From a virus: a stretch of DNA of 64,000 nt. Shown piece after piece: positions 1,112 to 58,765 of this stretch. Positions within the stretch are counted from its first letter, which is position 1. Each line of letters opens with the position of its first letter. The position numbers and the translations under genes are program-made. A model generated the notes under the pieces. The model was not told the DNA's origin, ran no database searches, and worked only from the letters and a program-made list of their open reading frames with translations. Location: IMG/VR virus record IMGVR_UViG_3300009136_000001, positions 1 to 64,000 of that record; one strand, 5' to 3'.

Positions 1112-1331
1112 TTATGAGGATGGGTTCGACTCCGAAGGAGTCATTGAATTCATTGAAGCCATGTTCCCAAAGATCGATCACTTCAAATGTGACTCGATCG
1201 ATGATGAGGGTTTCTGTGGGCATGTTATGGCTTCGGCGTATCCCCCGGAGGAACGGAGCTGTCTGCTGGCGAGGGATCTTGCCAAGACTTGTAAACATCG
1301 TCGCATATCCGAGATAAATCTCAATGCCTGA
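1104..1331 (+). CDS. Small cysteine-containing hypothetical protein
   Basis: A 75-residue acidic protein starting at the ATG at 1104, which overlaps the preceding stop by 8 nt. An in-frame codon at 1089 would extend it by five residues but has less support. Four cysteines (FKC, GFC, SC, KTC) and a nearby CKHRR could bind a metal, but spacing does not match a named zinc finger. It ends 8 nt inside the large terminase gene. An overlapping reading frame at 1108-1317 was judged a shadow because this frame links both neighbours by short overlaps. Confidence 0.6.
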   Translation: MDDYEDGFDSEGVIEFIEAMFPKIDHFKCDSIDDEGFCGHVMASAYPPEERSCLLARDLAKTCKHRRISEINLNA

Positions 1332-27306: not shown

Positions 27307-27566
27307 ACATTGAGTGTCGAGCGTTCATCGCAGAAGGTGGGCGGATATTTTATTATTGGGATGCTGAGTTACAAGGCATCTTCATTTTATGGTTATCGAC
27401 TGACGGTAAACCAACGAAGGAGCACATAAGGCTCTTCAAACGATTCCTGGATAATCATCAGGATGAAGACATTTATTTTAGTACGGCAGACGTAGCGTAC
27501 ATACAAAACCATGTGGACTTCCACGGGTACTACGGACATAAGAAGGTTTACAAATATGCAAAGTGA
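27294..27566 (+). CDS. Hypothetical protein upstream of portal
   Basis: A 90-residue protein rich in aromatic and basic residues (FYYWDAELQGIFILW; FHGYYGHKKVYKYAK). It overlaps the previous gene by 13 nt and the portal start by 11 nt, and contains the portal ribosome site AGAAGG near its end. No family recognised. Confidence 0.6.
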   Translation: MSHLDIECRAFIAEGGRIFYYWDAELQGIFILWLSTDGKPTKEHIRLFKRFLDNHQDEDIYFSTADVAYIQNHVDFHGYYGHKKVYKYAK

Positions 27567-29661
27567 AGACCAGACCACAGTTCCTGTCGTAGAGCAGAAG
27601 CCCCTGACTGAGTGGGCTAATGAGCCAAGTTTGGCTACTCTGAAAACGAACCTCAAGGATTCGAACGACGAACATAATAAGCAAACTGGTATCATCGATC
27701 GATATATCAAGAACCTCAATGGTGAGCCGAACTTCGTTGTCCGGAAAGGCAAGTCCAAAGTTGTACCCAAAACAATTCGCAAGCAAGCTGAGTGGCGTTA
27801 CGCTGCACTGTCTGAGCCATTCCTGAGCACAGATAGCCTGTTCGAAGTTGAGCCGGTTACCTGGGAAGATAAGCAAGCTGCTGCACAGAACAAGCTGGTA
27901 CTCAACAACCAGATGAATCAACGCATCGATAAGGTAGATTTTATCGATGAGTACGTCAGAACCATCACCGATGAAGGAACAGTAATAGTCAAAGTTGGCT
28001 GGAAGTTCGAATCTGAACTCAAGATGGTCGAGCAGGATGTCATGGAAATGCAACCTGTTCTGGATAACCAGAAAGCTCAGATGATGATCCAAGCAGGCCA
28101 GGAACCACTGGAGCCGGTAAAGGTCGGCACTGAAATGGTTGAACGTGAGGTCATCATCTACAATCAGCCTACGCTGGAGATCTGTGATTACAACCATGTG
28201 ATTTTGGATCCAACAGCCAAGGGCGTATTGTCCAAAGCTCAGTTTGTCATCTACCGCTTTGAATCCACGATCTCCGATCTGAAGAAAGACGGACGTTACC
28301 AGAATCTGGATGATATCCGGCTTGACGGTACAGAAGATGCTCAGCATGAACTGGATACCGAAAACAGCGACAGCGTTACTTTCACCTTCGAAGACGAAGC
28401 CCGTAAGAAAGTCTGGGTTTACGAATACTGGGGTTTCTACGATTACAATGAAACCGGCATCGTTGAACCCTTTATTGCGGCATGGGTCGGCAATGTCAAA
28501 ATCCGTATGGAAGAGAATCCCTTCCCGGATAAGCAACTTCCTTTCATCAATGTCCAATACCTGCCCGTACGTAAAAAGAACTACGGTCAGCCTGATGGCT
28601 ACTTGCTGGAAGAGAATCAGAACATCGTTGGTGCTGTCACCCGTGGCATGATTGATATCATGGGCCGAAGCGCTAATGCTCAACAGGGCGTACGCAAAGA
28701 TGCTCTGGACGTAACCAATAGTCGTAGGTTCGAGAACGGTGAAGATTACAAGTTCAACACCAATGTCGATCCTCGCCAAGCTTTCCATATGGGTACCTAC
28801 CCCGAGATCCCCAACTCAGCTATGCTGATGATCAACCATCAGTCTAATGAGGCGGAAGCGCTTACGGGTGTCAAAGCCTTCTCGCAGGGCATCACAGGGG
28901 ACTCCCTGGGTGCGAATGTCGGTAACGCTCGTGGTGCACTGGATGCAGCTTCAAAGCGTGAGCTGGGCATCCTGAGGCGTCTGGCATGGGGTATCGTACA
29001 GATAGGGCGCAAGTTCATCAGTATGAATTCAGAATTCCTGAGTGATGTCGAAGTAGTTCGTATCACCAATGAAGAGTTTGTCGAGGTTCGTCGTGACGAC
29101 CTGGCTGGTAAGTTCGACCTGAAACTGTCGATCTCTACCGCTGAGTCAGATAACGAGAAGGCTCAAGAGCTGGCATTCATGCTACAGACAACTGGGCCGA
29201 GTTCTGATCCGGGCGAAACTCGTATCATCCGGGCAGAGATAGCACGCCTACGTAAGATGCCTGCACTTGCCAAGCGCATCGAGGAGTACCAACCGCAACC
29301 TGATCCCTTGCAGCAGAAGAAAGCACAGCTTGAAATTGCTTTACTGGAAGCTCAGGTGTTGAATGAACGCGCCAAGGGACAAGAGAACGCAGTCGATGTA
29401 CAGCTCAAGTCTGCTAAGACTCAGACTGAGGTTGCCAAGACTCGTAACCTTAACTCAACGTCTGATCAGCAGGATCTGGACTTCGTTGAACAGGATCAAG
29501 GTATCAAGCACAATCAAGCGATTGACCTGAAAGAACTTGATGGTAAGATCGATTTGGACAGCAAAGCAGCTGATAAAATGCTCGAAAGTGGTGATACTGA
29601 GCAAAATACTGACACTCCGGAGGCACAAGACACTTCTTTTCTTGAAGAATTTCAGATATAG
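27556..29661 (+). CDS. Portal protein
   Basis: A 701-residue protein forming the dodecameric ring at the DNA-entry vertex. Size, acidic N-terminus, the phrase PTLEICDYNHVILDPTAKG and the long helical, Gln/Lys-rich C-terminus (about 580-680) fit podovirus portals of the N4/P22 size class. The ATG at 27556 was chosen over an upstream in-frame start at 27511 because of the AGAAGG site 8 nt ahead of it. Scaffold and capsid genes follow directly. A 436-codon antisense frame across it is a coding shadow. Confidence 0.8.
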   Translation: MQSEDQTTVPVVEQKPLTEWANEPSLATLKTNLKDSNDEHNKQTGIIDRYIKNLNGEPNFVVRKGKSKVVPKTIRKQAEWRYAALSEPFLSTDSLFEVEPVTWEDKQAAAQNKLVLNNQMNQRIDKVDFIDEYVRTITDEGTVIVKVGWKFESELKMVEQDVMEMQPVLDNQKAQMMIQAGQEPLEPVKVGTEMVEREVIIYNQPTLEICDYNHVILDPTAKGVLSKAQFVIYRFESTISDLKKDGRYQNLDDIRLDGTEDAQHELDTENSDSVTFTFEDEARKKVWVYEYWGFYDYNETGIVEPFIAAWVGNVKIRMEENPFPDKQLPFINVQYLPVRKKNYGQPDGYLLEENQNIVGAVTRGMIDIMGRSANAQQGVRKDALDVTNSRRFENGEDYKFNTNVDPRQAFHMGTYPEIPNSAMLMINHQSNEAEALTGVKAFSQGITGDSLGANVGNARGALDAASKRELGILRRLAWGIVQIGRKFISMNSEFLSDVEVVRITNEEFVEVRRDDLAGKFDLKLSISTAESDNEKAQELAFMLQTTGPSSDPGETRIIRAEIARLRKMPALAKRIEEYQPQPDPLQQKKAQLEIALLEAQVLNERAKGQENAVDVQLKSAKTQTEVAKTRNLNSTSDQQDLDFVEQDQGIKHNQAIDLKELDGKIDLDSKAADKMLESGDTEQNTDTPEAQDTSFLEEFQI

Positions 29662-29675
29662 TCTGGAACTATCAG

Positions 29676-29689
29676 TAAGTAAATACTTA
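29676..29689. repeat. Small hairpin after portal gene
   Basis: TAAGT-AAAT-ACTTA, a 5-bp stem and four-base loop in the 63-bp gap between portal and the next gene, just ahead of the ATAACAACAGG leader. No T-run follows, so termination is unlikely; an mRNA processing or stability role is possible. Confidence 0.45.
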
Positions 29690-29724
29690 TTGACATAACT
29701 AATATAACAACAGGACAACCCAAA

Positions 29725-30075
29725 ATGACTGACGTAGCAAGCAACGAGATGGATGCCATCCAGATGGAAATTGAAATGGCGCAGGACATGATCAAAGCCC
29801 GTGACGCACTGGTTCGATTGACCAGCAACGCGGATTTTAATCTGGTATTTACCCAGGGATATTTCGAGAAGGAAGCTTCTCGATTGGTTTTGCTCAAGGC
29901 GGAAGCCAGTATGGAAGATGAGCAGAAGCAGAAGAACGTTGATGACTCGATCATCGGTATTGGTCAGTTGTACCAGTACTGCCGCGCAGTGATGGCTCAG
30001 GGACAACAGTGTGATGCTGCTGTCGCCGATTACGAGCAGGAACTCGAAACCATGCGCGCTGACGAGTTAAGCTAA
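29725..30075 (+). CDS. Small helical protein between portal and scaffold
   Basis: A 116-residue all-helical protein (EIEMAQDMIKARDALVRL, CRAVMAQGQQCDAAVADYEQ). Proteins of this size and place occur in many podoviruses beside the portal and may help head assembly. The leader ATAACAACAGGACAACCC ahead of the ATG is nearly the same as that of 17569-17919. It ends 1 nt before the scaffold start codon. Confidence 0.65.
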   Translation: MTDVASNEMDAIQMEIEMAQDMIKARDALVRLTSNADFNLVFTQGYFEKEASRLVLLKAEASMEDEQKQKNVDDSIIGIGQLYQYCRAVMAQGQQCDAAVADYEQELETMRADELS

Positions 30076-30076
30076 G

Positions 30077-31396
30077 ATGAGTGTACCTGCAGAGACTATG
30101 GCTGCCGATCCAGCCCTCGCCGCTCCAGATGCTGCCATTGAAACCACTGATACTACTACGGTAGACAGTGACCGAGCAGCCGAGAACTCTGACAACGAGA
30201 TCCAGACTACGGAAATTGACTTCCTGGATCTCCCCGATGATGAGGTAGATGCTTACTTCATGAAGGAGTTGGAAAAAACTCCTGAGGCGGAAGACTCTGC
30301 AGGTACTGATGATCCACAATCTGATGAGGCTGCTGCGGCAGCCGCTGATGATCCGAAAGCCGACGATGACGAGGACGGTGAAGATGACGGAGAAGCTGCT
30401 GCTACTGAAAATCTGGATAGCGGTGAAGCTGCTTCAGACGATGATTCTGATGCTGGCGATGATACAGCCAGTGATGACAAAGCTTCCGGAGATGAAGCTG
30501 AAGCTGAAGAAGGAGATTCAGCTGGTGACGAAACTGAAGGACAAGACGATGATATTGTCACAACGGCTCTTGAGGATCTTGAAAAGATTTTAAGCCCGTT
30601 CAAGGCGAACGGAAAAGACATTCAAGTAGAGAATGTCGACGATGCAATAACCCTCATGAAGATGGGTGCGAACTACAACAAGAAGATGGCTGCACTTAAG
30701 CCTAACCTTCGGTTCGTTAAAATGCTCGAACAAAATGATTTGTTGGATGAAGGTAAACTTACTACGCTGATCGACATCAGCAAGAAGAACCCTTCAGCTA
30801 TCGCCAGGTTCGTAAAGGACAATGCGATCGACACCGACGAAATACTCGCAGAAGACGCGAGTGAAAATTATTCACCAGGAAAGTACGAAGTAAATGACTC
30901 CGAAATAGAGTTAGACCAAGTGCTTGATGGTATCAGGGGAAATGAATCATTCTCCCGAACCATAGACGTAGTGAGCAATCAATGGGATGCGAAGAGTAAG
31001 CAAATTATCTTCAACGATCCGAATATTATCACTGTAATTGATTCACAGATTGCGTCCGGAGTATTTGACAAGATTGTCAACCGGATGGAAACTGAGAAAA
31101 TGTTAGGCAAGTTGAATGGTGTGTCCGACATTGTAGCGTATAAGCAAATAGGTGAAGCATTAGCCGCTGCAGGTCTCTTGGAACCAACCCAAAAGGGCAA
31201 TGGTGAACAGACACAGACGACCACAACACAAGCCGAAAAGCCGGTAGACAAGGCACGCAATTCCAAACGGAAAGCAGCTGCGTCCACCAAACAAGCAGTC
31301 GCAAGCAAGAAGAAGACTGACTTGGACAATCTCAATCCGTTGAGCATGTCCGACGATGATTTCGAGAAAGTAGCGGCACAAACATTATTTAAGTAA
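30077..31396 (+). CDS. Capsid scaffolding protein
   Basis: A 439-residue protein with an extremely acidic N-terminal half (Asp/Glu/Ala-rich to about residue 165), a helical middle, and a basic linker before the C-terminus (SKRKAAASTKQ, ASKKK) ending in a short helix. This charge layout and the place between portal and capsid genes identify a scaffold, which templates the procapsid and is then released or cleaved. No protease motif is seen. It is 18 nt upstream of the capsid gene. Confidence 0.8.
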   Translation: MSVPAETMAADPALAAPDAAIETTDTTTVDSDRAAENSDNEIQTTEIDFLDLPDDEVDAYFMKELEKTPEAEDSAGTDDPQSDEAAAAAADDPKADDDEDGEDDGEAAATENLDSGEAASDDDSDAGDDTASDDKASGDEAEAEEGDSAGDETEGQDDDIVTTALEDLEKILSPFKANGKDIQVENVDDAITLMKMGANYNKKMAALKPNLRFVKMLEQNDLLDEGKLTTLIDISKKNPSAIARFVKDNAIDTDEILAEDASENYSPGKYEVNDSEIELDQVLDGIRGNESFSRTIDVVSNQWDAKSKQIIFNDPNIITVIDSQIASGVFDKIVNRMETEKMLGKLNGVSDIVAYKQIGEALAAAGLLEPTQKGNGEQTQTTTTQAEKPVDKARNSKRKAAASTKQAVASKKKTDLDNLNPLSMSDDDFEKVAAQTLFK

Positions 31397-31414
31397 TTAC
31401 AGAGGTAATATCTC

Positions 31415-32830
31415 ATGGCTTTCGAAGACGCGAGAATTTATGGCCCAGAGTCGGATGGTACCAGTTCAAGTATCGGTGCATCGACTCAAATTAATCCAAT
31501 TTGGTTCTGGAAAAAAGCCCTTGTCGAAATCGTCAAGGAACAGTATTTCGGTCAGCTGGCTGACGTACGCTCTATGCCTAAGCATATGGGTAAAACAATC
31601 AAGCAGCACCACTACCTGCCTTTGCTCGACGATCGGAACACTTCTGATCAGGGTATTGACGCGGCTGGTACTGCACTTACCGTTACTGGCAAGTGGCACG
31701 TATTCGACGGTGGCATAATTGTCCCCGACGCAACTATCGCTACGAACGCCGCTGGTTTCGCAACTAAAGCTCTTGCCGTCGCTGCTATGACAGCTCCCGC
31801 AACTCAAGGCGCAGTCCTGGGTTCTGGTGCTCTGTACAGCTCAAGCAAGGATATCGGTTCCATTACCGCTCGTCTGCCTGCTCTTTCTGAGTCTGGTGGT
31901 CGTGTAAATCGTGTTGGTTTTACTCGTAAGACCATCGAAGCCACTATCGAGAAATTTGGCTTCTTCGACGAATACACTCAAGAGTCAATGGACTTCGATA
32001 CCGATGCTGACCTCATGATGCACATCTCTCGCGAGTCTACTCGTGGTGCTTCTGAGATCACTGAAGACATGCTCCAGATCGATCTGATCAATGGCGCAGG
32101 TAACACCTGGTTAACTGGTGACGCATCTGCGTTGTCTGATATCGGTACCGCAGCTGGTGCTGGTAACGCTGTTGACTGCCTGGTTACCTACGACGACCTG
32201 GTTCGCATGAGCATCGAGCTTGACAACAACCGTTGTCCGAAGCATACCAAGCTGATTTCTGGCTCACGTATGATCGATACCAAGACCATCAACGCAGCTC
32301 GTTATCTGTACTGTGGTTCCGTCATGCTTCCGCTGTTGAAGCAAATGAAGGACTACCATGGCGAGAAAGCATTCATCTCTGTTGAGAAGTATGCCGCTGC
32401 TGGAAACGTTGCCTTCGGCGAAGTTGGTTCTATCGATAACTTCCGCATCATCGTTGTCAACGAAATGGTTGAGTGGGACGGTGGCGGTAACGCTAACGCA
32501 ACTCCTGGAACTACTGACTTGATCGACACTACTACTGCTGGTACTCCTGGCTTTGGTCTCCCCGTCGGTTCTGTCCTTGCCTCTAACGGTGTTGACTTCA
32601 ACGTCTACCCGCTGTTGGTTGTCGGTTCCGGTTCATTCACTACCATCGGTTTCCAAACTGACGGCAAGTCAATGAAGTTCAAAATTCATCACAAGGCACC
32701 GGGTCTTGAGATGGCGGATCGCAACGATCCGTACGGTGAGATCGGGTTCTACTCGATCAAATGGTACTACGCTTTCATGGGCTTGCGTCCTGAGTGGATC
32801 ACCATTGGCTACACTGGAGCAGTCCAGTAG
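31415..32830 (+). CDS. Major capsid protein, N4-gp56 type
   Basis: A 471-residue protein with the look of the N4 gp56 family: N-terminal ARIYGPESDG, a segment MPKHMGKTIKQHHYLPLLDD (about 50-69), central GRVNRVGFTRKTIEATIEKFG, and a C-terminal HHKAPGLEMADRNDPYGEIG. This family adopts the HK97 fold. Codon use is strongly biased (GGT, CGT, GAC, AAG), as expected for the most abundant virion protein. A GAGGTAAT site precedes the start and a strong terminator follows 26 nt after the stop. Confidence 0.85.
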   Translation: MAFEDARIYGPESDGTSSSIGASTQINPIWFWKKALVEIVKEQYFGQLADVRSMPKHMGKTIKQHHYLPLLDDRNTSDQGIDAAGTALTVTGKWHVFDGGIIVPDATIATNAAGFATKALAVAAMTAPATQGAVLGSGALYSSSKDIGSITARLPALSESGGRVNRVGFTRKTIEATIEKFGFFDEYTQESMDFDTDADLMMHISRESTRGASEITEDMLQIDLINGAGNTWLTGDASALSDIGTAAGAGNAVDCLVTYDDLVRMSIELDNNRCPKHTKLISGSRMIDTKTINAARYLYCGSVMLPLLKQMKDYHGEKAFISVEKYAAAGNVAFGEVGSIDNFRIIVVNEMVEWDGGGNANATPGTTDLIDTTTAGTPGFGLPVGSVLASNGVDFNVYPLLVVGSGSFTTIGFQTDGKSMKFKIHHKAPGLEMADRNDPYGEIGFYSIKWYYAFMGLRPEWITIGYTGAVQ

Positions 32831-39615: not shown

Positions 39616-42600
39616 ATGGCTTTTAGTACGAACTTTAAGGCAGTTAACTCTGCCTTTTTGCAGATAGGTAAGTCAATAGAGTTAGCTGAAGGCACGGAAC
39701 GAAAGAAAGCTCAGCTCGACTTCAAAACTGAGAAACTGTCGCTCGATAAAATTATCGATGGCGATACTGTCCTCATCACCAATCCTGACGGGACTACCCG
39801 TAAGATGCGCCTTGCCAATGGCGGCACAGGTCGCTCCCTGGATACCTACGAAACATTTAAAGATCTGGAGACCATGGATCCGGAGATGCGGGTTCGCATG
39901 GAATCCAAACTCCTCAGGCAACGTGGTGCACTCGCCAGAGAGCGTGGCGTAGATCTGGATGATGTCACCAACGAGAATGTATTCGAGCAAGGTGAGAAAG
40001 GCAGAGCAGCCCTGTACCAATCTTTATTGGATGGGCAGAACCCAGAAGATCTGGGTGGGCCACATGATACATCCCCCCTATTTGAATACGCTGACCTTGG
40101 TACCGAAGGTAAGTACAAGCGTGCGCTCGGGCTGACCCGGAACAGATCCGGTGTCATATCCAACCTCGCTCTCAATACTCCTGAGCTGAATGCCGCATAC
40201 GGCAGTGACTACAATGCTGTCGGACGGCAAGCATACTCTCAGGCGATCGAAGAACAGGAACGAGCCGCTGCAAAGCGACGGGCTGAAACTGGACTGTCAG
40301 ACGAATTCGCTGCCACTGGTGTCGGAGCGGTCGTTGATACTACAGGTAGACTCGCTGCCGGAGCGCAGCACGTTATCGGTATGGTTGCTGATCTACCGTT
40401 GGCTGGGATTGAGTGGATGGCTGATGGTCTTGAGCCTAATCCAGAGCTTGAAGGCACAGATGGTTACAATGAGCTGGTACATAATATTACCCAGTTCAAA
40501 AAGCAAACCAAAGAGAATCGCTCAGCAGTCGCTAAGCTATTTGAGGGTGGTACCAAATTCTGGAAGTCGTTCACCAACGATAAGAAAGTTGAAGAGACCA
40601 TGGCTTCGCTGGAGAAAGCCTGGGATCACGATCGATTTGCATCTGACTTTGCCGGTATCCTGGTTGAGAACCCCCATGCTACTTTGCAGTTCCTGGGTGA
40701 ATCCATACCGTTCATGTACACAGCTGCCAAGAAGGGAGCTGCTCTGCCGTTTGGTGCAGCGTTCACTGGTGAGAATTATAAAGCTGGTGTAGAGCTGTAT
40801 GAAGCCACATACGACAAAGCTCCCGAGACTGAAGAGAAGGCTTTGATCCTTGCTGGTGCCGGATTCATTGCCGCAATGAACAGTGCTGCATCCAAGTACG
40901 TAACCGGCGAAGAAGGCATGAAGATCATGCTTCGTAAGCTTGGTTTCAAAGGTATGAATTCTTTCATGACTCAGACAGCTGCTAAGCTGGGTGCCAATAT
41001 CCCTGCTGGTCGGTTGAAGAGCATGAGCGAGATGCTACTGAAAACCTCAGTCACTGCACTGACGCCAGCTGCACAGCTTGCTACCCGAGGTGCTGTTGAA
41101 TTTGTACAGGAAGGATCTGAAAGTCTGATCACTAAAGGTTCAGTGTTCCGTGATTTCAGTCAAACCTTCACTGATTCTAATCTGAAAGAGGCAGCCGTAT
41201 CTGGTGCCATTGGTTTCGGTACTGGTGCGACAGCTGGCCCCACGTTCCAAGCAGCAGGGGTGGTGAAGCTCGCCGGGATAGTAGGCAAGCAGACAGTCGA
41301 GAAAGGTGTTAAAGCCGCTGAGAACATCCCCTTCAATCGTGACGTAGCGAACTTCCGTGTTGACCAAGGTGATGAAGTTGTCAGTGGTGGTACCGCTGAA
41401 TCCCTGCTCCGGGAAATCAATGAAGAGTTTGCTGTCTTTGAGAGCGAAGCAGAAGCCAACGAGTTAGCCAACAATCCTCAGGAATTCGAAAGACGTTCAG
41501 CTCAACTGATGGCGAAGACCATGGATCTTGCTACCCATCTCCAAAAGATGGATAAGAAGACTCGTGCCAAGAATCCTGAAATGCAGGAAGCTGTTAACAA
41601 AGTTGTATCAGCTATCAATCTGCAGAGTGCCGCCGATGCTAACGCGAAGGTGGAACAAATTGAGAACCTACTGGCTTCGGAGAACGTCGATGAACAACAG
41701 CAGGGTATTGACCGGGTACTGGGATCGAGTGAAGAGGCTCTTTCGGTCTCCACCGAAACGATCGATAAAGCAATCGAAGTATCCCCGAATGAAAGTGTCA
41801 CCCAACAACTCAACGAGATCAAGCGAAAGAAAACTCTCGAAGAAGTAGCGGAAGACGTACTCCGTGGTAAGCCTGGATCTGGTTTCATCGGTGTGAAGAA
41901 TCGTCAGTACATCGCAGAGCGTTTGCTAAAATCAGGCGATATTGACGGAGCCAATGAGCAACTTGCAGAAATACGCAGATTCCGGGAAGTACATGGTGAG
42001 AAAGCCACCACTCTGATCAATGCTCAGAAGCAGTTCAAGGAAACTGGTCGAGGACAGACGGTAGAGATCGGTGGGCAGAACTTCTTTGTCGATGCCAGGT
42101 CGAAGAAATTAATCAACCAGGTCAGAGCTGAAGTCTTTGCCTTGAATGAAGTCGGTATGGCTTTGAAGAAAACCATCGCTGATGCACAGGTGAACACTCC
42201 TGAAGTAGAAGAGACCCAATCTGAGACCGAAGAGACCCAAATTGAGACCCCTGTCACAGCCCCTGCTGCTGTACAAGGGCTTGTAGTTCCTACTGCCAGC
42301 GATATTAGCACTCAGCTTAAAGAGGCTCGTAAGGGCAGCACAGACGCTCTCAAGCGCTTGCAAGAGCAGGCTGAAGTATTAGCCCAAGCTGGGAATAAGA
42401 AAGTTGCCAAGAAAATAACCGATTCTATTAAAAAGATCGAGGAAGCAGCGACTGCGGAGCGCGAAGCAGCGGAGCAGGAAGCGGCTGACGAGGCGATCAA
42501 CGACTCCATTCCAGATTCTGGAATACAGAATGAACTTGAATTGAAGCGAGGTGATTATGAATTACTGGACGTACTCGAAACAAGTAAATCCAACAAGCGT

Positions 42601-45600
42601 ACTCCGTTGGATGTACCGGCAAGCAACAAGCTTATACAAGCATTTAATTTTACCAGGGTTACATTATCTACATTTTTTAGCCGCAGTGCTAAAAGCAAAG
42701 CTAATGAAGCTCAGGAACCGATAGACGAGACTGATGCTGAGCACCTTGAACTCCTGAATGAGCAGTTCAAAAAGTACAGAAATATAGCCAAGCGTTTACC
42801 GAAGTTGGTCGGCAAAGAACTGAAAGCATTGCAGACGTTCACCAACAAGCAGGGTAAGCAGGTGAAAGCTGGTGGTCATGGTGATGACATCATGATGGAC
42901 ATGGCTGCACTACTGCTGGAAACTGACAAAGATGGTAACCTGATGTTACCTGATGACGTTATCCTTGCCTCATTTATGGGCGCGATGAACTGGATGACTC
43001 ACCAGAGCAAGGCTACCCTGTGGAATGACGACAAGCTGATAAACCAGCAGCTCTCACAAGCACCGAATTCTACTCTCACCAGTGAGCAGAAGCGTTTAAT
43101 GAGGGAGCGCGGTAGCAAGCGTGACTTCGTTGCCAAGACAATCGGTACTGACATATTTAATTCCTTGGCATTGAAAGCTGATACTTCTCAGCCGCTCGCC
43201 AGAGAGAAGATGATCATGTCCCTCGGGCTGTTCGCCACCAAAGTAATGTCCGCCATGGAAGAAGATGGTGACAAGTGGTTGACCGAAGATAGCGTATTAT
43301 TGGAGAATCTTGCCAATGTATCCAAGTCCTCAGAAAAAGTACAGGAGAAAGCAAGCCAAGTCTTCTTCATGCGGATATCCCCGGACTCAAAGAACAATCT
43401 GCAGGAAGCCCCTGGTCTGACGAAAGTGATCGACCAGTTTTCTGCAGCTATGCCGACAGCCCGTAAGCTGTTCAATCTGGAGAACTACGAGCGTAAGCCT
43501 CGATCGAAGCCCAGCAAGAAAGTAAATGATGCTCCTCGGGGTAATTTATTCAAAGCTGGAGCTACTGCTCTGGCTCGGGTACTGCATCTGCAGCAGGTAC
43601 CGTGGACTATGAATGCCACTGGTGACCTGACAGCCAAGTTGTCTGATGGGTTACTGAAGTCCATCTCTGGATATACGGAAGATGTTGCCACCACTGTGCA
43701 CATTACACAGCAGGGTGCTGTAGCAGCGGTCAATCGCCAGATTGATGATGGTATTAAGTACGCCAAGGAAATGCGGGAAGCTTTAGAAGACCCGGCATCC
43801 GGATTTGAAAATGGCGAACTGTTCTTTGATTACGAGATCTGGAGTAACAGCCGGGTCGGTATGACCAGCAATACCTTCGATCCTCAGAACAGCAAGTATC
43901 ACCGACACATTGTATCGCCGAAGAGCCACAAGACTACGGTGAACAGCAAGCGTAGGTTAGCAAACTTTAAGCGAGGCATAGCACTCGCATTTGATTACTC
44001 GGACAAAGGAGCCGCAGATGACTTTAAAACTGGTGCACAGCTCGAAGGAACCCTTAGTTCAGTCGAAGAAGAATTCGACCGGATCATCCACGACCCCAAG
44101 GTTCGCGCTGCGATCAGTGCAATCCGCGAAGTGCAAGCCCAGGAAGGTGCCGCATCCGAAGCGCAAGAAAGGATTATCCTTTCAGCAGTCGGGGATTCCG
44201 ACACCAAGTTCCACGGACTTGAAGCGCTTGTGGAATTATCATCAGCGCTCGGTACTCGGTTCGGCCTAAAGAAATCTTTCACTACTACCCTGTCAGTTGA
44301 GACTGATGGCGTAACGTCTGGGGTTACACTGGGTCTGATGCAGGCTCCGATCGTAAACAATATCCAGACCTGGCTGGCTCGGGGTGGAATATTCCTGAAC
44401 GGGAATTTCACTAACCTCGGTGACGCACGGGAAGCTATCCCAACCGACTCCTACCAGCAGCTGGTTCTCGATGCAGTCAAAATGCTGGAACAGGTGAACC
44501 CTGCCGGACTCGAACAGGTTGAAGCGATTCTGGGTAAGCTGACCGAAGATGGGGCAGTGACCAGCGTAGGTCGTAACCTGATGAAGAATCCTCTAATGGT
44601 TTACTCCTACGGAGCAGGTGAGTTCGCAATTAAGCGACATATGGCGGGAGCAATCCAGACAGCTCTGTATGAGAAGCTGGCGGAAACAAACGGTGACAAG
44701 GAAGCAATGGACGAGTTGTCGCAAACCGTTTCTGCACTTATGCGACAAAACGTTGTCTTTGAAGATCACCTTACTTCCGAGTTCAGCAAGTCTGAGCAGG
44801 AAGCATTCGACAAAGCAATCTACGATTCGATCGGTGATGCGACTGTATCTTCCCTGGATCATAATTTTAAAGAGATGGCTGACCAGCGCAAAGTTCTGCT
44901 GCAGGCATTGAGTATCAGTTTCCATACCTTCGAGATGAAGTACATCGAGGCAGTCCAGAAGTACAAGGACTCCAATGGTATCACGAGTCAGTTCCTGAGC
45001 AAGGAGCAGAAGAAAGAAGTCCTGAACCGGCCTGATGTTAAACCGTTCATTCCTTATTTCAATAGCCCGTACGGAACCAAGAACCGGGAATCTGCGGTCT
45101 CAATACTCGCCGAAGAGATTGTACGGGGCATCATTAATGACGAGAATCGTGGAGCATCTTTCTTCACTCCGACGGTCAGTAATCGAATTCCATCGTACAC
45201 AAGTGACACTTCTGGCTCACAAGTCGGTCAATCTGGTCAATCTTCCTCCGCTCTTGTTAAGAATAAGCGCTACCGGGTAGACGGTGTAGCAGCCCTGCCG
45301 AAGATGATTCACACTTTGGATAGTACACTCATTCTGGATACCCTGAACAAGTTTGATGGGCTGAACATTCATGATGCTGGCATGTACAGTGTCGACAGTG
45401 TGGACAATGCTACCAAGCTGTACAATCAGAAGGTATTCGAGACAGGTCGGAACTACTCGTTGATCGGTGACATAACCCAGATGGTTACAAACCAGACCAG
45501 CAAGCTGACCGAGGAAGAAAAGGTCAAGGTACTGGAAGGCACCATAGCCGAGGAAGATGCCCGGATCAAGAATGAAGAGAGCAAGCAGGATATCAATACT

Positions 45601-48600
45601 GATACTACTGACTTTGACGATCGGATTAAATTCCTGAACAAGATCTCTCAGGATATCCAGGCTGCCAAGGAGAATCTGTTTGAAAGCATCTCGCATGTTC
45701 ACCAGGCAGCGTACCCGTCACAGTCCAGCGTATACAGCACCGGGCAGGAAAAAGAATACAGCCCGATGTGGATCGACTTCGAATACCACCCCGGTGAGTA
45801 TGATGCTGTCGAGATTCCGATGCAGACCCGAGAAGAATATTCCGAAGGCGTGCTACAAAGCAGCCAAGACTCCCTATCCAATTTCGAGGCAAGTTATGAG
45901 AATGAAGCTACTGCAGAGACTTCGCAACAAATTTTTGATGTCCTATCTAAGTTTGGTCATGTACGAGAGAACGGTCAACACCAGCGTCATCTACGCGGGA
46001 TCCTGGATACAATTATAAACAAGGCTCTGAAGCCTGCTCAAGAATTCATTATCCAAGTTGGTGATGATGCCAAGGCGAGAAACGTCGGGCAGATTTCGGG
46101 TAAAACGATCCAGATACAGCTCGGTAAGTACCGTCCTGATCTATCCTTGAACCAATCCGCCGAGGAGATCTACATCCACGAACTGTTGCACGGCATAACA
46201 GCGAACGAACTGGATAGCAATTTTGCTCTGCGCCAGAAACTGGCTAAGCTATTCGAGACAGCGAAGAAGCACATCACTCCAGCCGATCTGATTACCCCAG
46301 CGGTAACCCAGACTCGTACTGTCATGATGGATCACGTTGAAGCTCTGGCAGCTCAGGCACGCTACGACTACATCTTTAACAATCGGAATGCTACCGGAGG
46401 CTCAGACGGGCTGCATGAATTCCTGGCGTTTGGATTATCCAATGAGACCTTCGTCAAGAAGCTGGCAACTATCCCCTTTAAAGTTCCCAGGGAAAAAGCA
46501 ACGAACGTGTTCGAAGCGCTGATCAACCTGTTCCATAAGATATTCGAAGCAGTCGCATCTAAATACCACGGCAAAGTAAATGTCGGTAGCGATGTGTACT
46601 CACAGCTGTTGGATCTGACCAAGGATTTAACTGCCATCAATGAAGGCTGGCGTTTCCCAATGTCCGGCATGTTCGGAGCCATAAATGATCGGAAGCAATC
46701 TTTCGAGAATTCTGTGTATTCCAAAGGTGACGCACTTCGTAAGAAGCTGAACACCATGATCGATGCGGATAGAAGCGCAGTGCACCGCAAAATGTTCACC
46801 TTGGTTAACACCCTGAAAGCAGTATCTCATGAGAAATTTGGTAAGACCCTTATCCAGTGGCTCCAAGACCACACTGAGGGCGACAGCTTCATGGGAGTCC
46901 TATGGAGAGAATTAGCAGGTGGCTCTGAACACTTCCGTAATTGGTTACCCCTGCTGCGGTACAGCAAGCAGCGGATCGATACTGCCCGCTTAGCAGCCAA
47001 GCAGAACATCATCCGAATTCTGGGCGAGACATTCGTCGAGGAAGCTACGGACGAAGAGAAAGAAATGCTGCATGATGCTTTGCTGAAAACTGACCTGGCA
47101 GCTCTCCTACCCCAGAACCCAACCAACCGGGATATCCGGGAGATCATGAAACTCTTCAGTGACCCGGCTGAGATCGATGCCGCAATCAATGAGATCATGA
47201 AGAAGATCGGCAATGTGAAGCAGAAGACCTACTATCAAAAGCAGGCTAATAATCTGGGTTACTTCATGGCTACCGGCAACAACTCGCTGGAGCACGCCAA
47301 CCTGAATGCATACAACATAGCTCGCCTGAGCTTAACCGATCGGGTGAATAACGATCTGGCTACCACGGATACCGTTGCTCTGATTGATCAACTGGCTTCC
47401 CTGTACGCAATTAAGTACACTTCTTCAGATGCGAAGGTATTATTTACCGAGTATGTTACCCGTACGTTAGCCACTGACTCCAAGACCAATGCTATTCGAT
47501 TGATCCTGAACCTGCAGGCTGACCATAAAGATTTCACCAGGGATAACCTGTTCAAGGATGAAGCTCACAGCGTCATCAAAGGTTTCACCAATGAGCTGAT
47601 CGACCAGAACATAGCGGTCAAGGTCGGCAAAGTATCGGATGAAGCGATACTGGCGAAGCAGGGATTCAAGATAGCTTTCAAGATGGATAGCTTAGCTGAT
47701 GGCGAGAAGATGGCTTTCTACACAGCGATGAACGGAGCAGCCACAACCTACACCCGTACCATATTCAGTACAACTGCGGAAAATGTGAAGGGTACCACTC
47801 TCACAGCAGCGTTCATGAATGATAACCCACTGGTAGGACGCTCCGAAGCGAAGCTGGCGCAGAATGCTCTGCGTAAGCAAGCAATGGAGAATATGAATAA
47901 GCAGTTCACCGGGAAGGTTCCTGACCTGAGCCAAAGATCCACCAGGCAGAGAAATCCCCTGATCCCATTGGTTAACGCCAAAGGCGAGAGTTACGAGTAC
48001 CGTCAGATCCTGAATCACCAGATGAGGAAGGAGCACCTGAACGAGGACAGACGTATCGATGAAGTACTGGGTGCGATGTACGGAGCAATGAAGGACAAGC
48101 TGAATACTCGCAAGAATAATCAGATCGTTATCGAGAACCTCTACAAGGATTATCAGGACAATTACGACAACGAGCCTGATCAGTTTGTCCGGGTAGGTGT
48201 GAATGGTGACTACGGTGACGTATGGGCGGTAATCCCAGAGCAATCCAAAGAACACATCAGGAGCCTCACAGGAGTCCGTGAGATCTACATCCGGGCCGAA
48301 GTGGTAGATCTTGTCATGGGTTACAGAAAGTTCTCCCTGAGCGATACCAAGATGGCTAAGCGGGTACTCCCCCCACAAGTTCGACACATCATGGATATCA
48401 GTGGAAAGGTTTGGCAGGAGATAGTTGCCCTTGGTGCTGTGCAGATCGTCGTGAAGACGCCTCAGGTGCTCGTAGACAACGTTCTCTCTAACACGATCAT
48501 TCTTATCAGGGACGGATTAAATCCCACTGACATCGTTCGTAGGCACCTTGAGGGGATCGCTGCGCTGAACCAATACGAATTGGACATCTCTGAAGAGCAG

Positions 48601-49323
48601 AAACTGGTACTTGAACTCCAACAGGATGCTAATAATCACCGAAAAGTAGCAAAATTGGCAAAGGTTAGGGAATCAATCAAGAGAAATCCTGTCACTGAGC
48701 TTGTTACAGAGGGTATATTCCAGAGTATAACTGAGGATATTAACGTAAATAAGTACACGAGTGCGTCAACGATAGCCAATACCCGTGTAGGTAAGGCTGT
48801 CCAGAACAACATGCCAGGGTTTATGACCCCTATATTTCAGCACGTATTCATGACTAAAGATACGTACCTGTTTAAACAGTTCCTAAAAGCAACTCAATAC
48901 AGTGATTTCCTTGCTCGATACACACGGTATGCATTCCTGAAGGAGAAGGAAGGTCTTGATCAATTGGAAGGTGATGCTTACAGGCTGAAGAAAAATGAGA
49001 TTCTTGCTGACCTGATTGAAGATTACGTGAACTACGATGTGCCACAGCACAAGATGCTGCAGTACGCTAACGATATGGGGATGGTTCGTTTTACGAAGTA
49101 TTTCTTGAGAACTCAACGAGTGATCGTTAAGAAGTGGAAGCAGCAGCCAATCAATAACATGGCGTCAGTATGGTTACAGCAGGTGGTAGGTGATCAGCCA
49201 GATATCAATGACAGCTTCATGCCCTTTATGAGTCCAATGGATAAGGTATCTATCTTCGATGTTATATCTGATGCGACAGATCCGAAAGGCTTGGAACTGG
49301 CAGGTGGGTTGTTCGGACTATAG
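39616..49323 (+). CDS. Giant virion-associated RNA polymerase (N4 gp50-like) with zinc metallopeptidase domain
   Basis: A 3,235-residue protein packaged in the head and injected to start early transcription. The T7-type polymerase core spans about 1000-1950: a TxxGR-like segment WSNSR ending at R1413, motif A ETDGVTSG with D1564, motif B RNLMKNPLMVYSYG with R1653, K1657, Y1665, and motif C NIHDA with H1919-D1920. The K-to-Y spacing of eight equals that of N4. Residues 2187-2193 (IHELLHG) and LHEFLAFG with E2268 form a gluzincin-like site of the kind seen in polyvalent phage proteins. N- and C-terminal thirds are helical with no named domain. It converges on the - strand genes. Confidence 0.85.
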   Translation: MAFSTNFKAVNSAFLQIGKSIELAEGTERKKAQLDFKTEKLSLDKIIDGDTVLITNPDGTTRKMRLANGGTGRSLDTYETFKDLETMDPEMRVRMESKLLRQRGALARERGVDLDDVTNENVFEQGEKGRAALYQSLLDGQNPEDLGGPHDTSPLFEYADLGTEGKYKRALGLTRNRSGVISNLALNTPELNAAYGSDYNAVGRQAYSQAIEEQERAAAKRRAETGLSDEFAATGVGAVVDTTGRLAAGAQHVIGMVADLPLAGIEWMADGLEPNPELEGTDGYNELVHNITQFKKQTKENRSAVAKLFEGGTKFWKSFTNDKKVEETMASLEKAWDHDRFASDFAGILVENPHATLQFLGESIPFMYTAAKKGAALPFGAAFTGENYKAGVELYEATYDKAPETEEKALILAGAGFIAAMNSAASKYVTGEEGMKIMLRKLGFKGMNSFMTQTAAKLGANIPAGRLKSMSEMLLKTSVTALTPAAQLATRGAVEFVQEGSESLITKGSVFRDFSQTFTDSNLKEAAVSGAIGFGTGATAGPTFQAAGVVKLAGIVGKQTVEKGVKAAENIPFNRDVANFRVDQGDEVVSGGTAESLLREINEEFAVFESEAEANELANNPQEFERRSAQLMAKTMDLATHLQKMDKKTRAKNPEMQEAVNKVVSAINLQSAADANAKVEQIENLLASENVDEQQQGIDRVLGSSEEALSVSTETIDKAIEVSPNESVTQQLNEIKRKKTLEEVAEDVLRGKPGSGFIGVKNRQYIAERLLKSGDIDGANEQLAEIRRFREVHGEKATTLINAQKQFKETGRGQTVEIGGQNFFVDARSKKLINQVRAEVFALNEVGMALKKTIADAQVNTPEVEETQSETEETQIETPVTAPAAVQGLVVPTASDISTQLKEARKGSTDALKRLQEQAEVLAQAGNKKVAKKITDSIKKIEEAATAEREAAEQEAADEAINDSIPDSGIQNELELKRGDYELLDVLETSKSNKRTPLDVPASNKLIQAFNFTRVTLSTFFSRSAKSKANEAQEPIDETDAEHLELLNEQFKKYRNIAKRLPKLVGKELKALQTFTNKQGKQVKAGGHGDDIMMDMAALLLETDKDGNLMLPDDVILASFMGAMNWMTHQSKATLWNDDKLINQQLSQAPNSTLTSEQKRLMRERGSKRDFVAKTIGTDIFNSLALKADTSQPLAREKMIMSLGLFATKVMSAMEEDGDKWLTEDSVLLENLANVSKSSEKVQEKASQVFFMRISPDSKNNLQEAPGLTKVIDQFSAAMPTARKLFNLENYERKPRSKPSKKVNDAPRGNLFKAGATALARVLHLQQVPWTMNATGDLTAKLSDGLLKSISGYTEDVATTVHITQQGAVAAVNRQIDDGIKYAKEMREALEDPASGFENGELFFDYEIWSNSRVGMTSNTFDPQNSKYHRHIVSPKSHKTTVNSKRRLANFKRGIALAFDYSDKGAADDFKTGAQLEGTLSSVEEEFDRIIHDPKVRAAISAIREVQAQEGAASEAQERIILSAVGDSDTKFHGLEALVELSSALGTRFGLKKSFTTTLSVETDGVTSGVTLGLMQAPIVNNIQTWLARGGIFLNGNFTNLGDAREAIPTDSYQQLVLDAVKMLEQVNPAGLEQVEAILGKLTEDGAVTSVGRNLMKNPLMVYSYGAGEFAIKRHMAGAIQTALYEKLAETNGDKEAMDELSQTVSALMRQNVVFEDHLTSEFSKSEQEAFDKAIYDSIGDATVSSLDHNFKEMADQRKVLLQALSISFHTFEMKYIEAVQKYKDSNGITSQFLSKEQKKEVLNRPDVKPFIPYFNSPYGTKNRESAVSILAEEIVRGIINDENRGASFFTPTVSNRIPSYTSDTSGSQVGQSGQSSSALVKNKRYRVDGVAALPKMIHTLDSTLILDTLNKFDGLNIHDAGMYSVDSVDNATKLYNQKVFETGRNYSLIGDITQMVTNQTSKLTEEEKVKVLEGTIAEEDARIKNEESKQDINTDTTDFDDRIKFLNKISQDIQAAKENLFESISHVHQAAYPSQSSVYSTGQEKEYSPMWIDFEYHPGEYDAVEIPMQTREEYSEGVLQSSQDSLSNFEASYENEATAETSQQIFDVLSKFGHVRENGQHQRHLRGILDTIINKALKPAQEFIIQVGDDAKARNVGQISGKTIQIQLGKYRPDLSLNQSAEEIYIHELLHGITANELDSNFALRQKLAKLFETAKKHITPADLITPAVTQTRTVMMDHVEALAAQARYDYIFNNRNATGGSDGLHEFLAFGLSNETFVKKLATIPFKVPREKATNVFEALINLFHKIFEAVASKYHGKVNVGSDVYSQLLDLTKDLTAINEGWRFPMSGMFGAINDRKQSFENSVYSKGDALRKKLNTMIDADRSAVHRKMFTLVNTLKAVSHEKFGKTLIQWLQDHTEGDSFMGVLWRELAGGSEHFRNWLPLLRYSKQRIDTARLAAKQNIIRILGETFVEEATDEEKEMLHDALLKTDLAALLPQNPTNRDIREIMKLFSDPAEIDAAINEIMKKIGNVKQKTYYQKQANNLGYFMATGNNSLEHANLNAYNIARLSLTDRVNNDLATTDTVALIDQLASLYAIKYTSSDAKVLFTEYVTRTLATDSKTNAIRLILNLQADHKDFTRDNLFKDEAHSVIKGFTNELIDQNIAVKVGKVSDEAILAKQGFKIAFKMDSLADGEKMAFYTAMNGAATTYTRTIFSTTAENVKGTTLTAAFMNDNPLVGRSEAKLAQNALRKQAMENMNKQFTGKVPDLSQRSTRQRNPLIPLVNAKGESYEYRQILNHQMRKEHLNEDRRIDEVLGAMYGAMKDKLNTRKNNQIVIENLYKDYQDNYDNEPDQFVRVGVNGDYGDVWAVIPEQSKEHIRSLTGVREIYIRAEVVDLVMGYRKFSLSDTKMAKRVLPPQVRHIMDISGKVWQEIVALGAVQIVVKTPQVLVDNVLSNTIILIRDGLNPTDIVRRHLEGIAALNQYELDISEEQKLVLELQQDANNHRKVAKLAKVRESIKRNPVTELVTEGIFQSITEDINVNKYTSASTIANTRVGKAVQNNMPGFMTPIFQHVFMTKDTYLFKQFLKATQYSDFLARYTRYAFLKEKEGLDQLEGDAYRLKKNEILADLIEDYVNYDVPQHKMLQYANDMGMVRFTKYFLRTQRVIVKKWKQQPINNMASVWLQQVVGDQPDINDSFMPFMSPMDKVSIFDVISDATDPKGLELAGGLFGL

Positions 49324-49558: not shown

Positions 49559-49627
49559 TGGGGTGAGGCGGGGAATCGAACCCCTCCCCACGAGTCACAG
49601 TCGTAGGTCTTCCCTGAAGTACCTCAC
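49559..49627 (-). tRNA. tRNA-His (GTG), compact
   Basis: Acceptor GTGAGGT pairs with GCCTCAC (one T-G wobble), followed by C73 and an encoded CCA. The T loop TTCGATT is canonical, and the anticodon loop CTGTGAC gives anticodon GTG (+ strand 49596-49598). At 69 nt it is short: the D arm is reduced to TTC-AGG-GAA and the T stem is one pair short. The extra G-1 normally encoded for tRNA-His is a T here. C73 supports His identity. It may be a decayed or unusual tRNA. Confidence 0.7.
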
Positions 49628-54612: not shown

Positions 54613-55089
54613 TTAGTGGGTTATTGCGTAATGCGCTATCATTAGTGCATCTGACTTACCATCTTGCAATCCGCCGAACTTACCGTGGATTACAACGTCA
54701 GGGTAAAGAGCCTTGCAGCGTTCAGCTACAAGTTGTTTCAGGATTTTCTGTCGGTCTTTTTTTATATCTTTTGGAAGGACAGCTCCAATATGTGCTTGCC
54801 AGACTTTCGGCGTGACATAGTTGAGAGTTGCCCCGGTACAATTGATAATGGTTTCCGACACACCAAGGTTCCGTCCAAATTGGAAGTTCGATTTTGCAGA
54901 CATACCGTACAGGCTGTGCACATCCTCGATATAGATCTTTGGATCCCGTTCGATCACTAAAGGACGAAGGGTATGGTACAGATCATATGCTTGGGTTTTG
55001 TTGGCGAAGAATGTTGCTTCACCAGTATCCGGGGACAGGACACAAATGTATCCTGTTGCCCCCGGATCTATACCGACAGTGCGGAGCAT
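54613..55089 (-). CDS. RuvC-like Holliday junction resolvase
   Basis: A 158-residue endonuclease of the RuvC/RNase H fold that cuts branched DNA during replication and packaging. The acidic site is visible: D8 in GIDPGATG, E55 in YIEDVHS, and D143/D147 in QDGKSDALMIAHYA. The QFGRNLG segment also matches RuvC. Length is that of stand-alone RuvC. It directly follows the ssDNA-binding protein gene with shared stop/start. Confidence 0.85.
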   Translation of the reverse strand: MLRTVGIDPGATGYICVLSPDTGEATFFANKTQAYDLYHTLRPLVIERDPKIYIEDVHSLYGMSAKSNFQFGRNLGVSETIINCTGATLNYVTPKVWQAHIGAVLPKDIKKDRQKILKQLVAERCKALYPDVVIHGKFGGLQDGKSDALMIAHYAITH

Positions 55090-55802
55090 TAGCTGAACAG
55101 GCTACTTGTAGCTTGCCCTGCGTCAGCAGCGCTTGCAACTCCTGGATCACCAGCAACAGATACTGTACGATCTTTGACAGTGCCAGTGTTCTTGGCAGCC
55201 CACTTTTCAGCAAACTCACCTTTTGACAGGCCAGCTTTCTTTTCAACAGTGGTGCATCCGGTACCGTGTTCGAAGAACTTGTCGATAACCAGTTGGTCAC
55301 GGGTTTCAGCGGTGGGAACGTAAACACCTTCGGCATTCTTGACGTTCTTGTTGACAGTTTCCTTGATGACACCGACAGCGATTTTCTTGCCGATCAGTGA
55401 AGTCAGAACCTGCTTGCTCTGAAGAGTTTCTTTCTTCAGGTCGAAGTCATAAACGGGGATTTCACGAGCTTCAGGGACGATGCTTGCCAGTTCTTCACCA
55501 GCAGCGAGTTGAGTCAGCGATGCTGCGACAAGGTAACCAGGAAGGTATTGCTTGTTGCCGTTGCGGTCGATGTAGAAGTTTTTCTTGCCCTTCTTCACGC
55601 CACTGGTCATCCATAAGGTGTTACGGATGTTGCGACCATCGCTTGTTGCCAGGGACAGGATCAGTCCCAGAGCGCCACCTTGTGACTCTTCGACATAAGC
55701 CATTTCAATGGCAGTATCGTAAAGACCGGAGTCAGGCATTCCACCACCAAGGCGATCTGTTTCATCAGCGATTTCGCTGTCTTTCTGTAAATTTTCAAAC
55801 AT
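55089..55802 (-). CDS. Single-stranded DNA-binding protein (N4 gp45-like)
   Basis: A 237-residue protein in the place of the N4 SSB gene, between the resolvase and the Sak4-type ATPase. The N-terminal OB-like part (YDTAIEMAYVEESQGGALGL, then SDGRNIRNTLWMTSG) resembles phage SSB proteins of the DUF2815 kind. In N4 this protein also activates host RNA polymerase at late promoters, so it may link replication to late transcription here. The ATG at 55802 was chosen for its ACGAGA site and for fit with family starts. Confidence 0.6.
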   Translation of the reverse strand: MFENLQKDSEIADETDRLGGGMPDSGLYDTAIEMAYVEESQGGALGLILSLATSDGRNIRNTLWMTSGVKKGKKNFYIDRNGNKQYLPGYLVAASLTQLAAGEELASIVPEAREIPVYDFDLKKETLQSKQVLTSLIGKKIAVGVIKETVNKNVKNAEGVYVPTAETRDQLVIDKFFEHGTGCTTVEKKAGLSKGEFAEKWAAKNTGTVKDRTVSVAGDPGVASAADAGQATSSLFS

Positions 55803-55850
55803 GAGTTTTTGTCTCGTTGTTGTGATTGATGTTTCGCCCTCTCGCAAGGG

Positions 55851-56586: not shown

Positions 56587-56622
56587 CGTTGGAGCAGCGT
56601 AGCTGCGTAAACGTGCGACGTT
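56587..56622. promoter_or_regulatory. Two tandem triloop hairpins between replication genes
   Basis: Within the 62-bp gap upstream of the Sak4-type gene lie GCAGC-GTA-GCTGC (56594-56606), extended by CGTT/AACG outside a 3x3 internal loop, and AACGT-GCG-ACGTT (56610-56622). Both have 5-bp stems and three-base loops, the general form of N4-type virion RNAP promoters, but also of mRNA regulatory hairpins. No consensus can be tested here. Confidence 0.5.
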
Positions 56623-58765
56623 AAGGAGACTTCTGAGCCTCTTTCTTCGCAATGGTGATCATGATAGTAGAACTAATCTCTTGATCAGAGAGAGGAGTTT
56701 CCAACTTCTCGTTAAAGCCATCGATCATTGCACGGATTGCTTGCAGTGGGTAACCGTTGTCTACGAGTACAAGACCATACTTCAGCAGCATGTTCGAGCG
56801 ATTGCCTTCTTCAGTCTCACGAATGAACCACTTTTCCAGAGTGGACAGGGAATCATAATTTGCGAACACAGCACTTTGCTCTTCTGCTTTCTTGGTCTTG
56901 GGAATGAAGAGAGTTGCGTCGACCAGCTCACCATTATTGTAGTGGATTTCACCAGCGTGACTTTCCCACTTACGGGCAATGTCTTTGGCAGATTCATCTA
57001 CTTCAAATGGCAGCCATTGAAATACGTTGGTCATGTAGCGTGAGTGATCACGAGCATCCAGTTTGATGTGGTGACTCAACGGCAGGATAATACGAAAGCG
57101 ATTCTTCATAGCAGTATGGCGCTTTGTAGTAGCCATCAGGTACGTATAATCTTCCAACAGGGACTGAGCTGTGTCCAGTTGGGTACCATCGTCAACGTCA
57201 AGGATCAGCAGATTGAATCCACGGATCACTTTGTCCGAGTGACGGTACTGGTCAATGAAGTGGTGGCTTGTGTAATGATAGCCAGATTGGAGTACAACCT
57301 TATCCAGTGAAGCAAAGGGTACACTCTCCGGAATGAATCCAGTAGTGATGTCTTGGCTATATGACAGGGTCATCTGATTGGTATCGGTCTCCTGTAGGGA
57401 TTCTCCTTTCAGGAATTCGATGTTGTCCAAGTAGCTACGTTGGATGATGATGTTGTTCTTGTAGCCATAGGCGACAGCCAGCGACATGAGTTCACGCTTG
57501 TGATTCTCACTACCACGATAGAACGGAAGCTCTTCAACGAGATCGACCTGCGTGACCTCACGACCTACATCAGCAATGTAGTTAGCTAACCGGGCGTAAT
57601 TCCGTTCACGGGTCATCAGCTTCGTGAAGCTATCTCCGGAATTCTCCGCAAGGAGAATAGCAGATTCCAGGTGCTCACGTTCGATGGTGTTTGCTCCGTC
57701 AACAAAGGCATACGCCCCAGCCAGTTTAAGTGCTTTGTAATACCGATGAGCTGCTTCCGCCTTTTGCACTTCTTGGTGATCACGAAAGTTGTGAGCTTTG
57801 GCGTCACCGTAAATTTTATATTCCAGGAGCAGCAGGGCTACGTCCTGACTCATGGTCAACGTCTTATTGAAGTTGGATGTGAGGCTGAGGTTCATCAGCT
57901 TGTTGCCCAGGTCTTCCATTGACTTACCGAGATCGGAAGCTGTGAGCATGTCGTACAGAGCCTGTGGATCTTCTACAGCAATGTGCTTGCTGTCACGACT
58001 GTAACCAAAGAATAGGCGACGAGCGTAACCAGTTTCCAGCATGGTAACGAATTCCTGCTCTGTCTTGTCACCATCCAGCAATTTTGCGGGAGTTCCGAAC
58101 AGCATCATGTTACAGGGGGTCTTACCCTCGATCTGCTTGTTACGGGTGTTTTCCTTGGTATTTTTGATCAATTTAGCCTTGATCTTGCCGACATCGTACA
58201 GCTCCAGGAAAGTGTTCAATGCTTCGTTGTTCCCGAGTAGATTGGATCCAACCTCATCCATTTCAAATGCCATTGATCCAGCACCTGCCATGAGCAGCTT
58301 GTGGCGCAATTGCTTGATAGCTGGGCCAGTGCCTGAGTCAAATGAGAATACCATCTCTCCTGCTTCAGCGAACTCCTTGTCTACCTTTGCTTCTTCCTCA
58401 TCAGCGTCAGTGTCGTGCTCATCACAGCGCTCCAGAGTGATCTTGGCGAGCTGGATAGTGGACAGGGACGGGAAGGTATTGTTCAGGAAGTTGTCCTGGA
58501 ATTTCTGAGTGATGTGCTCTTCCATGACGTTCGTGGAATAGCCTTTACCGGAACCGGAAGGCATCAGATTCAGTGCATACATGTTCACCGGGATTACTCC
58601 ACGGTCATGCGTCTTGATATTCGTACGCATCATGGAAGCAAGCTTCGAGAAATAATAGGCAGTCAAAATCCGGAAGAAATGAAGATTGGTGCTTTGGGTC
58701 TTTTTTGACATAACGTCAACGAGTTCTTCACTGGTTGAGTTGTGCTTATAGTTCGAAAAATCCAT
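56621..58765 (-). CDS. Helicase-primase fusion (ATPase domain first, AEP primase second)
   Basis: A 714-residue replication protein. Residues 60-300 hold a P-loop ATPase (MPSGSGKG at 68-75; MDEVG at 169-173) of the DUF3987-like helicase type. Residues 475-640 look like an archaeo-eukaryotic primase palm: LLILDVDDGT with D523/D525, then RFRIILPL at 557-564. Residues 640-710 resemble the PriCT helical tail (SNMLLKYGLVLVDNGYPLQA). The ATPase precedes the primase, the reverse of the common primase-helicase order. By context it is the counterpart of N4 gp42. Confidence 0.65.
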   Translation of the reverse strand: MDFSNYKHNSTSEELVDVMSKKTQSTNLHFFRILTAYYFSKLASMMRTNIKTHDRGVIPVNMYALNLMPSGSGKGYSTNVMEEHITQKFQDNFLNNTFPSLSTIQLAKITLERCDEHDTDADEEEAKVDKEFAEAGEMVFSFDSGTGPAIKQLRHKLLMAGAGSMAFEMDEVGSNLLGNNEALNTFLELYDVGKIKAKLIKNTKENTRNKQIEGKTPCNMMLFGTPAKLLDGDKTEQEFVTMLETGYARRLFFGYSRDSKHIAVEDPQALYDMLTASDLGKSMEDLGNKLMNLSLTSNFNKTLTMSQDVALLLLEYKIYGDAKAHNFRDHQEVQKAEAAHRYYKALKLAGAYAFVDGANTIEREHLESAILLAENSGDSFTKLMTRERNYARLANYIADVGREVTQVDLVEELPFYRGSENHKRELMSLAVAYGYKNNIIIQRSYLDNIEFLKGESLQETDTNQMTLSYSQDITTGFIPESVPFASLDKVVLQSGYHYTSHHFIDQYRHSDKVIRGFNLLILDVDDGTQLDTAQSLLEDYTYLMATTKRHTAMKNRFRIILPLSHHIKLDARDHSRYMTNVFQWLPFEVDESAKDIARKWESHAGEIHYNNGELVDATLFIPKTKKAEEQSAVFANYDSLSTLEKWFIRETEEGNRSNMLLKYGLVLVDNGYPLQAIRAMIDGFNEKLETPLSDQEISSTIMITIAKKEAQKSP

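What the first reader, a model, noticed from the sequence alone, without database searches (positions are those of the whole stretch)
39616..49323. Giant protein is an N4-type virion RNA polymerase
Motif A (ETDGVTSG, D1564), motif B (R1653-x3-K1657-x7-Y1665-G) and motif C (H1919-D1920) of single-subunit T7-type polymerases occur in the right order and with spacing close to that of N4 gp50, inside a 3,235-residue protein at the convergent end of the late block. This fixes the phage group and predicts early hairpin promoters outside or at the edge of the window.
Basis: partly seen in the sequence, partly recalled or inferred. Interest (0 to 1): 0.75.

Follow-up and report, generated by a model that had tools for sequence, protein, structure and literature searches.

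The report
Divergent phage N4-type virion RNA polymerase
The giant protein is a genuine but distant relative of the RNA polymerase that phage N4 packs in its particle and injects with its DNA; it belongs to a well-known phage family (Schitoviridae) and is ordinary for that family.

Summary
Confirmed. ORF 39616-49323 (3,235 aa) is a virion RNA polymerase of the N4 gp50 type. PHROG 2206 "virion RNA polymerase" matches at E=0, Pfam N4_RNAP_helical just above its cut-off. A profile of 58 relatives finds the N4 structures at E about 2e-84. An AlphaFold2 model of residues 1000-2090 (pLDDT 80, pTM 0.83) has N4 vRNAP as its ten best PDB matches, then mitochondrial and T7 RNAPs. The protein has no cysteine and carries the known C-terminal HExxH domain. 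The 79,023-bp record (window = 1-64,000) has Schitoviridae gene order, with a split gp15/gp16-like RNAPII beyond the window. The predicted early hairpin promoters were not found in N4 form: a scan that recovers all three N4 promoters gives none in the early leader. A tandem pair of AGGTCA dyads lies there, function unproven. Nearest known vRNAPs are only about 24% identical: a new member of a known kind.

The parts
39616..49323 (+). virion RNA polymerase gene, 3,235 aa, cysteine-free
39616..42447 (+). N-terminal domain, residues 1 to about 944 (boundary mapped from N4 residue 998)
   Evidence: alignment A1; boundary approximate
42448..45852 (+). T7-type single-subunit RNAP domain, residues about 945-2079 (N4 998-2103)
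43852..43854 (+). R1413 = N4 mini-vRNAP R424 (T/DxxGR motif; only the Arg is kept)
44299..44322 (+). motif A, ETDGVTSG 1562-1569; D1564 = N4 D559
44572..44613 (+). motif B, R1653-x3-K1657-x7-Y1665-G = N4 R666, K670, Y678
45370..45375 (+). motif C, H1919-D1920; D1920 = N4 D951
45853..49320 (+). C-terminal domain, residues about 2080-3235
   Evidence: known as an inhibitory domain in N4 (PMC12633501)
46177..46191 (+). HELLH 2188-2192, zincin-like motif of the C1 subdomain; probable third ligand E2268 at 46417-46419
   Evidence: PMC5512222, PMC12633501
35071..39612 (+). genes in gp53, gp52 and gp51 position (888, 199 and 424 aa), all without cysteine
   Evidence: gp51 by position only
55089..55847 (-). 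single-strand DNA-binding protein, schitovirus type
56621..58765 (-). DNA primase, schitovirus type
27511..32830 (+). portal, tape-measure-type and major head protein genes, schitovirus type
1324..2904 (+). terminase large subunit

Best explanation
The protein is an N4-type virion RNA polymerase. It is packaged in the head, ejected into a Gram-negative host with the first part of the genome, and its central T7-type single-subunit RNAP domain transcribes the early genes, which encode the split gp15/gp16-like RNAPII for the middle genes. Shown here: homology, catalytic residues, predicted fold, gene context. Inferred from N4 and relatives: packaging, ejection, use of single-stranded template, restraint of the RNAP by the C-terminal domain. 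Not shown: what its promoters look like.
For: PHROG 2206 E=0; Pfam N4_RNAP_helical; profile of relatives to N4 structures E 2e-84; hhalign 100%; BLASTP to the N4 domain E 8e-13; catalytic residues one to one with N4; AlphaFold2 model matches N4 vRNAP first; no cysteine in it or in the gp51-53 position proteins; schitovirus gene order and RNAPII, SSB, primase.
Against: No N4-type early hairpin promoter found in the early leader. The -11 loop-recognition residues of N4 cannot be aligned with confidence. Motif A has S1568 where nearly all have N. No virion proteomics or activity data.
Confidence: 0.97

Rival explanations
1. A virion protein of vRNAP descent that has lost polymerase activity and serves only for ejection or DNA entry.
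For: Motif A carries S1568 in place of a nearly invariant Asn, and no N4-type promoter was found.
Against: Every named catalytic residue is kept and no other early polymerase was recognised among the genes searched.
Confidence: 0.02
2. A giant polyvalent or tape-measure-like protein whose T7-type motifs are chance resemblances.
For: Many giant phage proteins are polyvalent (PMC5512222); short motifs alone can mislead; a single-sequence PDB search found nothing.
Against: Family match over the protein, predicted fold and one-to-one catalytic residues.
Confidence: 0.005

Closest known systems
Escherichia phage N4 gp50 (vRNAP; PDB 2po4, 3c2p, 3c3l, 9pnr)
   Same: Same catalytic residues, same predicted fold, same three-part layout, no cysteine, HExxH in the C-terminal domain, convergent position next to gp51-gp53.
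   Different: About 18% identical overall; 3,235 instead of 3,500 aa; T/DxxGR motif reduced to Arg; S1568 for Asn; no N4-type early hairpins found.
vRNAP of Vibrio phage phi50-12, Alteromonas phage PT15-A5 and related marine schitoviruses
   Same: Best matches among isolates, WxxxR form of the T/DxxGR motif in phi50-12, same gene order.
   Different: Only about 24% identical over the matched part.
Uncultivated schitovirus records behind L012, L013, L014, L023
   Same: RNAPII large subunit 43-45% (L013, L014, L023) and capsid 53-73% identical in matched pieces, so nearer lineage.
   Different: vRNAP still only 26-29% identical in the best segment; no AGGTCA dyads in the early regions of L013, L014 and L023 records.

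Membership tests
N4-type virion RNA polymerase | Giant (about 3,000-3,500 aa) protein matching the vRNAP family | tested here: met
   3,235 aa; PHROG 2206 E=0
N4-type virion RNA polymerase | Catalytic residues R424, D559, K670, Y678, D951 (set named in PMC2784036) | tested here: met
   R1413, D1564, K1657, Y1665, D1920
N4-type virion RNA polymerase | Complete T/DxxGR motif | tested here: not met
   Only the Arg is kept (WSNSR); the same loss is seen in accepted vRNAPs such as phi50-12 and LP14, so the full motif is not defining
N4-type virion RNA polymerase | Single-subunit RNAP fold closest to N4 mini-vRNAP | tested here: met
   AlphaFold2 model, ten best PDB matches N4 vRNAP
N4-type virion RNA polymerase | No cysteine | tested here: met
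   0 of 3,235; also 41 of 50 full-length relatives
N4-type virion RNA polymerase | C-terminal HExxH domain | tested here: met
   HELLH 2188-2192
N4-type virion RNA polymerase | Early promoters are template-strand hairpins with 3-nt loop | tested here: inconclusive
   None of N4 form in the leader; the consensus may differ and the record end may be incomplete
N4-type virion RNA polymerase | Packaged in the virion and ejected | not testable with these tools
   needs an isolate
N4-type virion RNA polymerase | Transcribes single-stranded promoter templates in vitro | not testable with these tools
   needs the purified enzyme
Schitoviridae | vRNAP, gp15/gp16-type RNAPII, SSB, primase, portal, major capsid protein and terminase in convergent blocks | tested here: met
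   nearest isolates by primase and capsid about 49% identical, listed ones N4-like

The most novel reading that the evidence does not exclude
This vRNAP lineage has changed promoter type: it starts early transcription not at 3-nt-loop hairpins but at tandem dyads with larger loops (AGGTCA-N7-TGACCT and AGGTCAA-N5-TTGACCT, genome 78,418-78,466).
Probability: 0.07. Interest if true: 0.5.

Novelty: new member of a known kind. Interest (0 to 1): 0.22.

Why it matters
It adds a deeply diverged example to a well-studied enzyme family and shows which residues are truly fixed (R424, D559, R666, K670, D951 and the HExxH motif). It could serve to ask how far hairpin-promoter recognition is conserved. 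It does not change what is known of the family.

Tried and rejected
A single-protein scan of viral contigs found nothing; the alignment A1 found 282 relatives. Strict N4 hairpin pattern, 4-bp-stem variants and general dyads were scanned: no convincing promoter set. Eleven N4-like hairpin matches in the genome are scattered on both strands as chance would give; the two nearest the early end (75,939 and 77,834) are on the wrong strand for leftward early genes. I considered reporting the HExxH domain and the lack of cysteine as new; both are already published (PMC5512222, PMC12633501, PMC3715699, PMC2784036). A claim that the loop-stacking W129 is lost was rejected because the alignment there is unreliable.

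Full report
Observation. The 3,235-aa ORF at 39616-49323 is real and unbroken. It ends the + strand block; tRNA genes (His, Asn, Ile at 49.56-49.87 kb) and - strand replication genes follow.

Identity. PHROG 2206, virion RNA polymerase, matches with E=0 and Pfam N4_RNAP_helical with E 4.2e-6, just above its curated cut-off. A tblastn search finds 359 phage records, all under 60% identity, the best about 24% over 63% of the query. A single-sequence PDB search misses the relation; direct BLASTP against the N4 mini-vRNAP gives E 8e-13, hhalign 100% probability, and a profile of 58 relatives finds the N4 structures at about 2e-84 to 2e-80 and T7 RNAP weakly at 0.0014.

Catalytic residues. PMC2784036 names R424, D559, K670, Y678 and D951 as the catalytic set. 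Across 58 sequences R1413, D1564, R1653, K1657 and D1920 remain invariant. The T/DxxGR motif is kept only in its Arg (WSNSR here), as in several relatives.

Fold. AlphaFold2 with a 58-sequence alignment gave pLDDT 80.3 and pTM 0.83 for residues 1000-2090. The ten best PDB matches are N4 vRNAP entries (E 1.4e-28 to 8e-24, query TM 0.64-0.66); mitochondrial and T7 RNAPs follow. Predicted viral structures give vRNAPs of Vibrio phages first.

Other domains. A HELLH motif at 2188-2192 is invariant in the ten aligned proteins, and HExxH occurs in 85 of the 90 sequences examined; the five without it are short fragments of 722-1169 aa. In 69 of the 85 a downstream E-[FLM] motif (E2268 here, GLHEFLAFGL) follows within 53-107 residues, and most of the remainder show it by eye. 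This is the zincin-like domain described in PMC5512222 and seen in the N4 C1 subdomain (PMC12633501). That preprint also reports that the N4 C-terminal domain restrains the polymerase. The absence of cysteine, reported before for N4-like vRNAPs (PMC3715699, PMC2784036), extends here to the neighbouring proteins in gp51, gp52 and gp53 position, consistent with ejection through the periplasm (inference).

Genome. The window is bases 1-64,000 of a 79,023-bp virus record. The rest holds RNAPII genes like gp15 (genome 75,885-76,607) and gp16 (74,518-75,528) and small early genes. Terminase, portal, major head protein, SSB, Sak4-like protein, primase, exonuclease and DNA polymerase match phage families found in N4-like phages. 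Primase and capsid are about 49% identical to the nearest isolates, so the phage is probably an undescribed lineage of Schitoviridae (inference).

Promoters. The finding predicted early hairpin promoters. A pattern for N4-type hairpins recovers exactly three sites in the first 6 kb of N4, before gp1, gp2 and gp15, where its early promoters lie, and none in the early leader of this genome or in early regions of three relatives; matches elsewhere look like chance. In the noncoding leader two related dyads, ATAGGTCA-N7-TGACCTAT and AGGTCAA-N5-TTGACCT, lie 30 bp apart; no such related pair arose in 200 mononucleotide shuffles. They may be operators or promoters; nothing here decides it.

Verdict. 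The protein is a new, divergent member of a known kind; the expected promoter type remains unconfirmed.

Noticed in passing
window 59798-62417 (-): The DNA polymerase is split into two cistrons with an ATGGATAG stop/start overlap at 60897-60904. In one relative (L013 record) it is split at the same place with about 445 bases between, in another (L023 record) it is in three pieces, in others it is whole.
   Followed up: partly
L004:18418-18466 (genome 78,418-78,466, outside the window): Tandem dyads AGGTCA-N7-TGACCT, 30 bp apart, in the noncoding early leader; operator or promoter candidates.
   Followed up: partly
window 20698-26269 (+): Three large adjacent ORFs (554, 676, 613 aa) in the late block with no PHROG or Pfam match.
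   Followed up: no
window 15019-15984 (+): Protein with a marginal match to Amidoligase_2 (E 4.4e-5, just above cut-off).
   Followed up: no
window 49559-49867 (-): Cluster of three tRNA genes (His, Asn, Ile) at the convergence point; Rfam confirms two at its threshold.
   Followed up: no
L004:5820-8194 (genome 65,820-68,194, outside the window): Polynucleotide kinase and RNA ligase family genes close together, a possible tRNA-repair pair.
   Followed up: no
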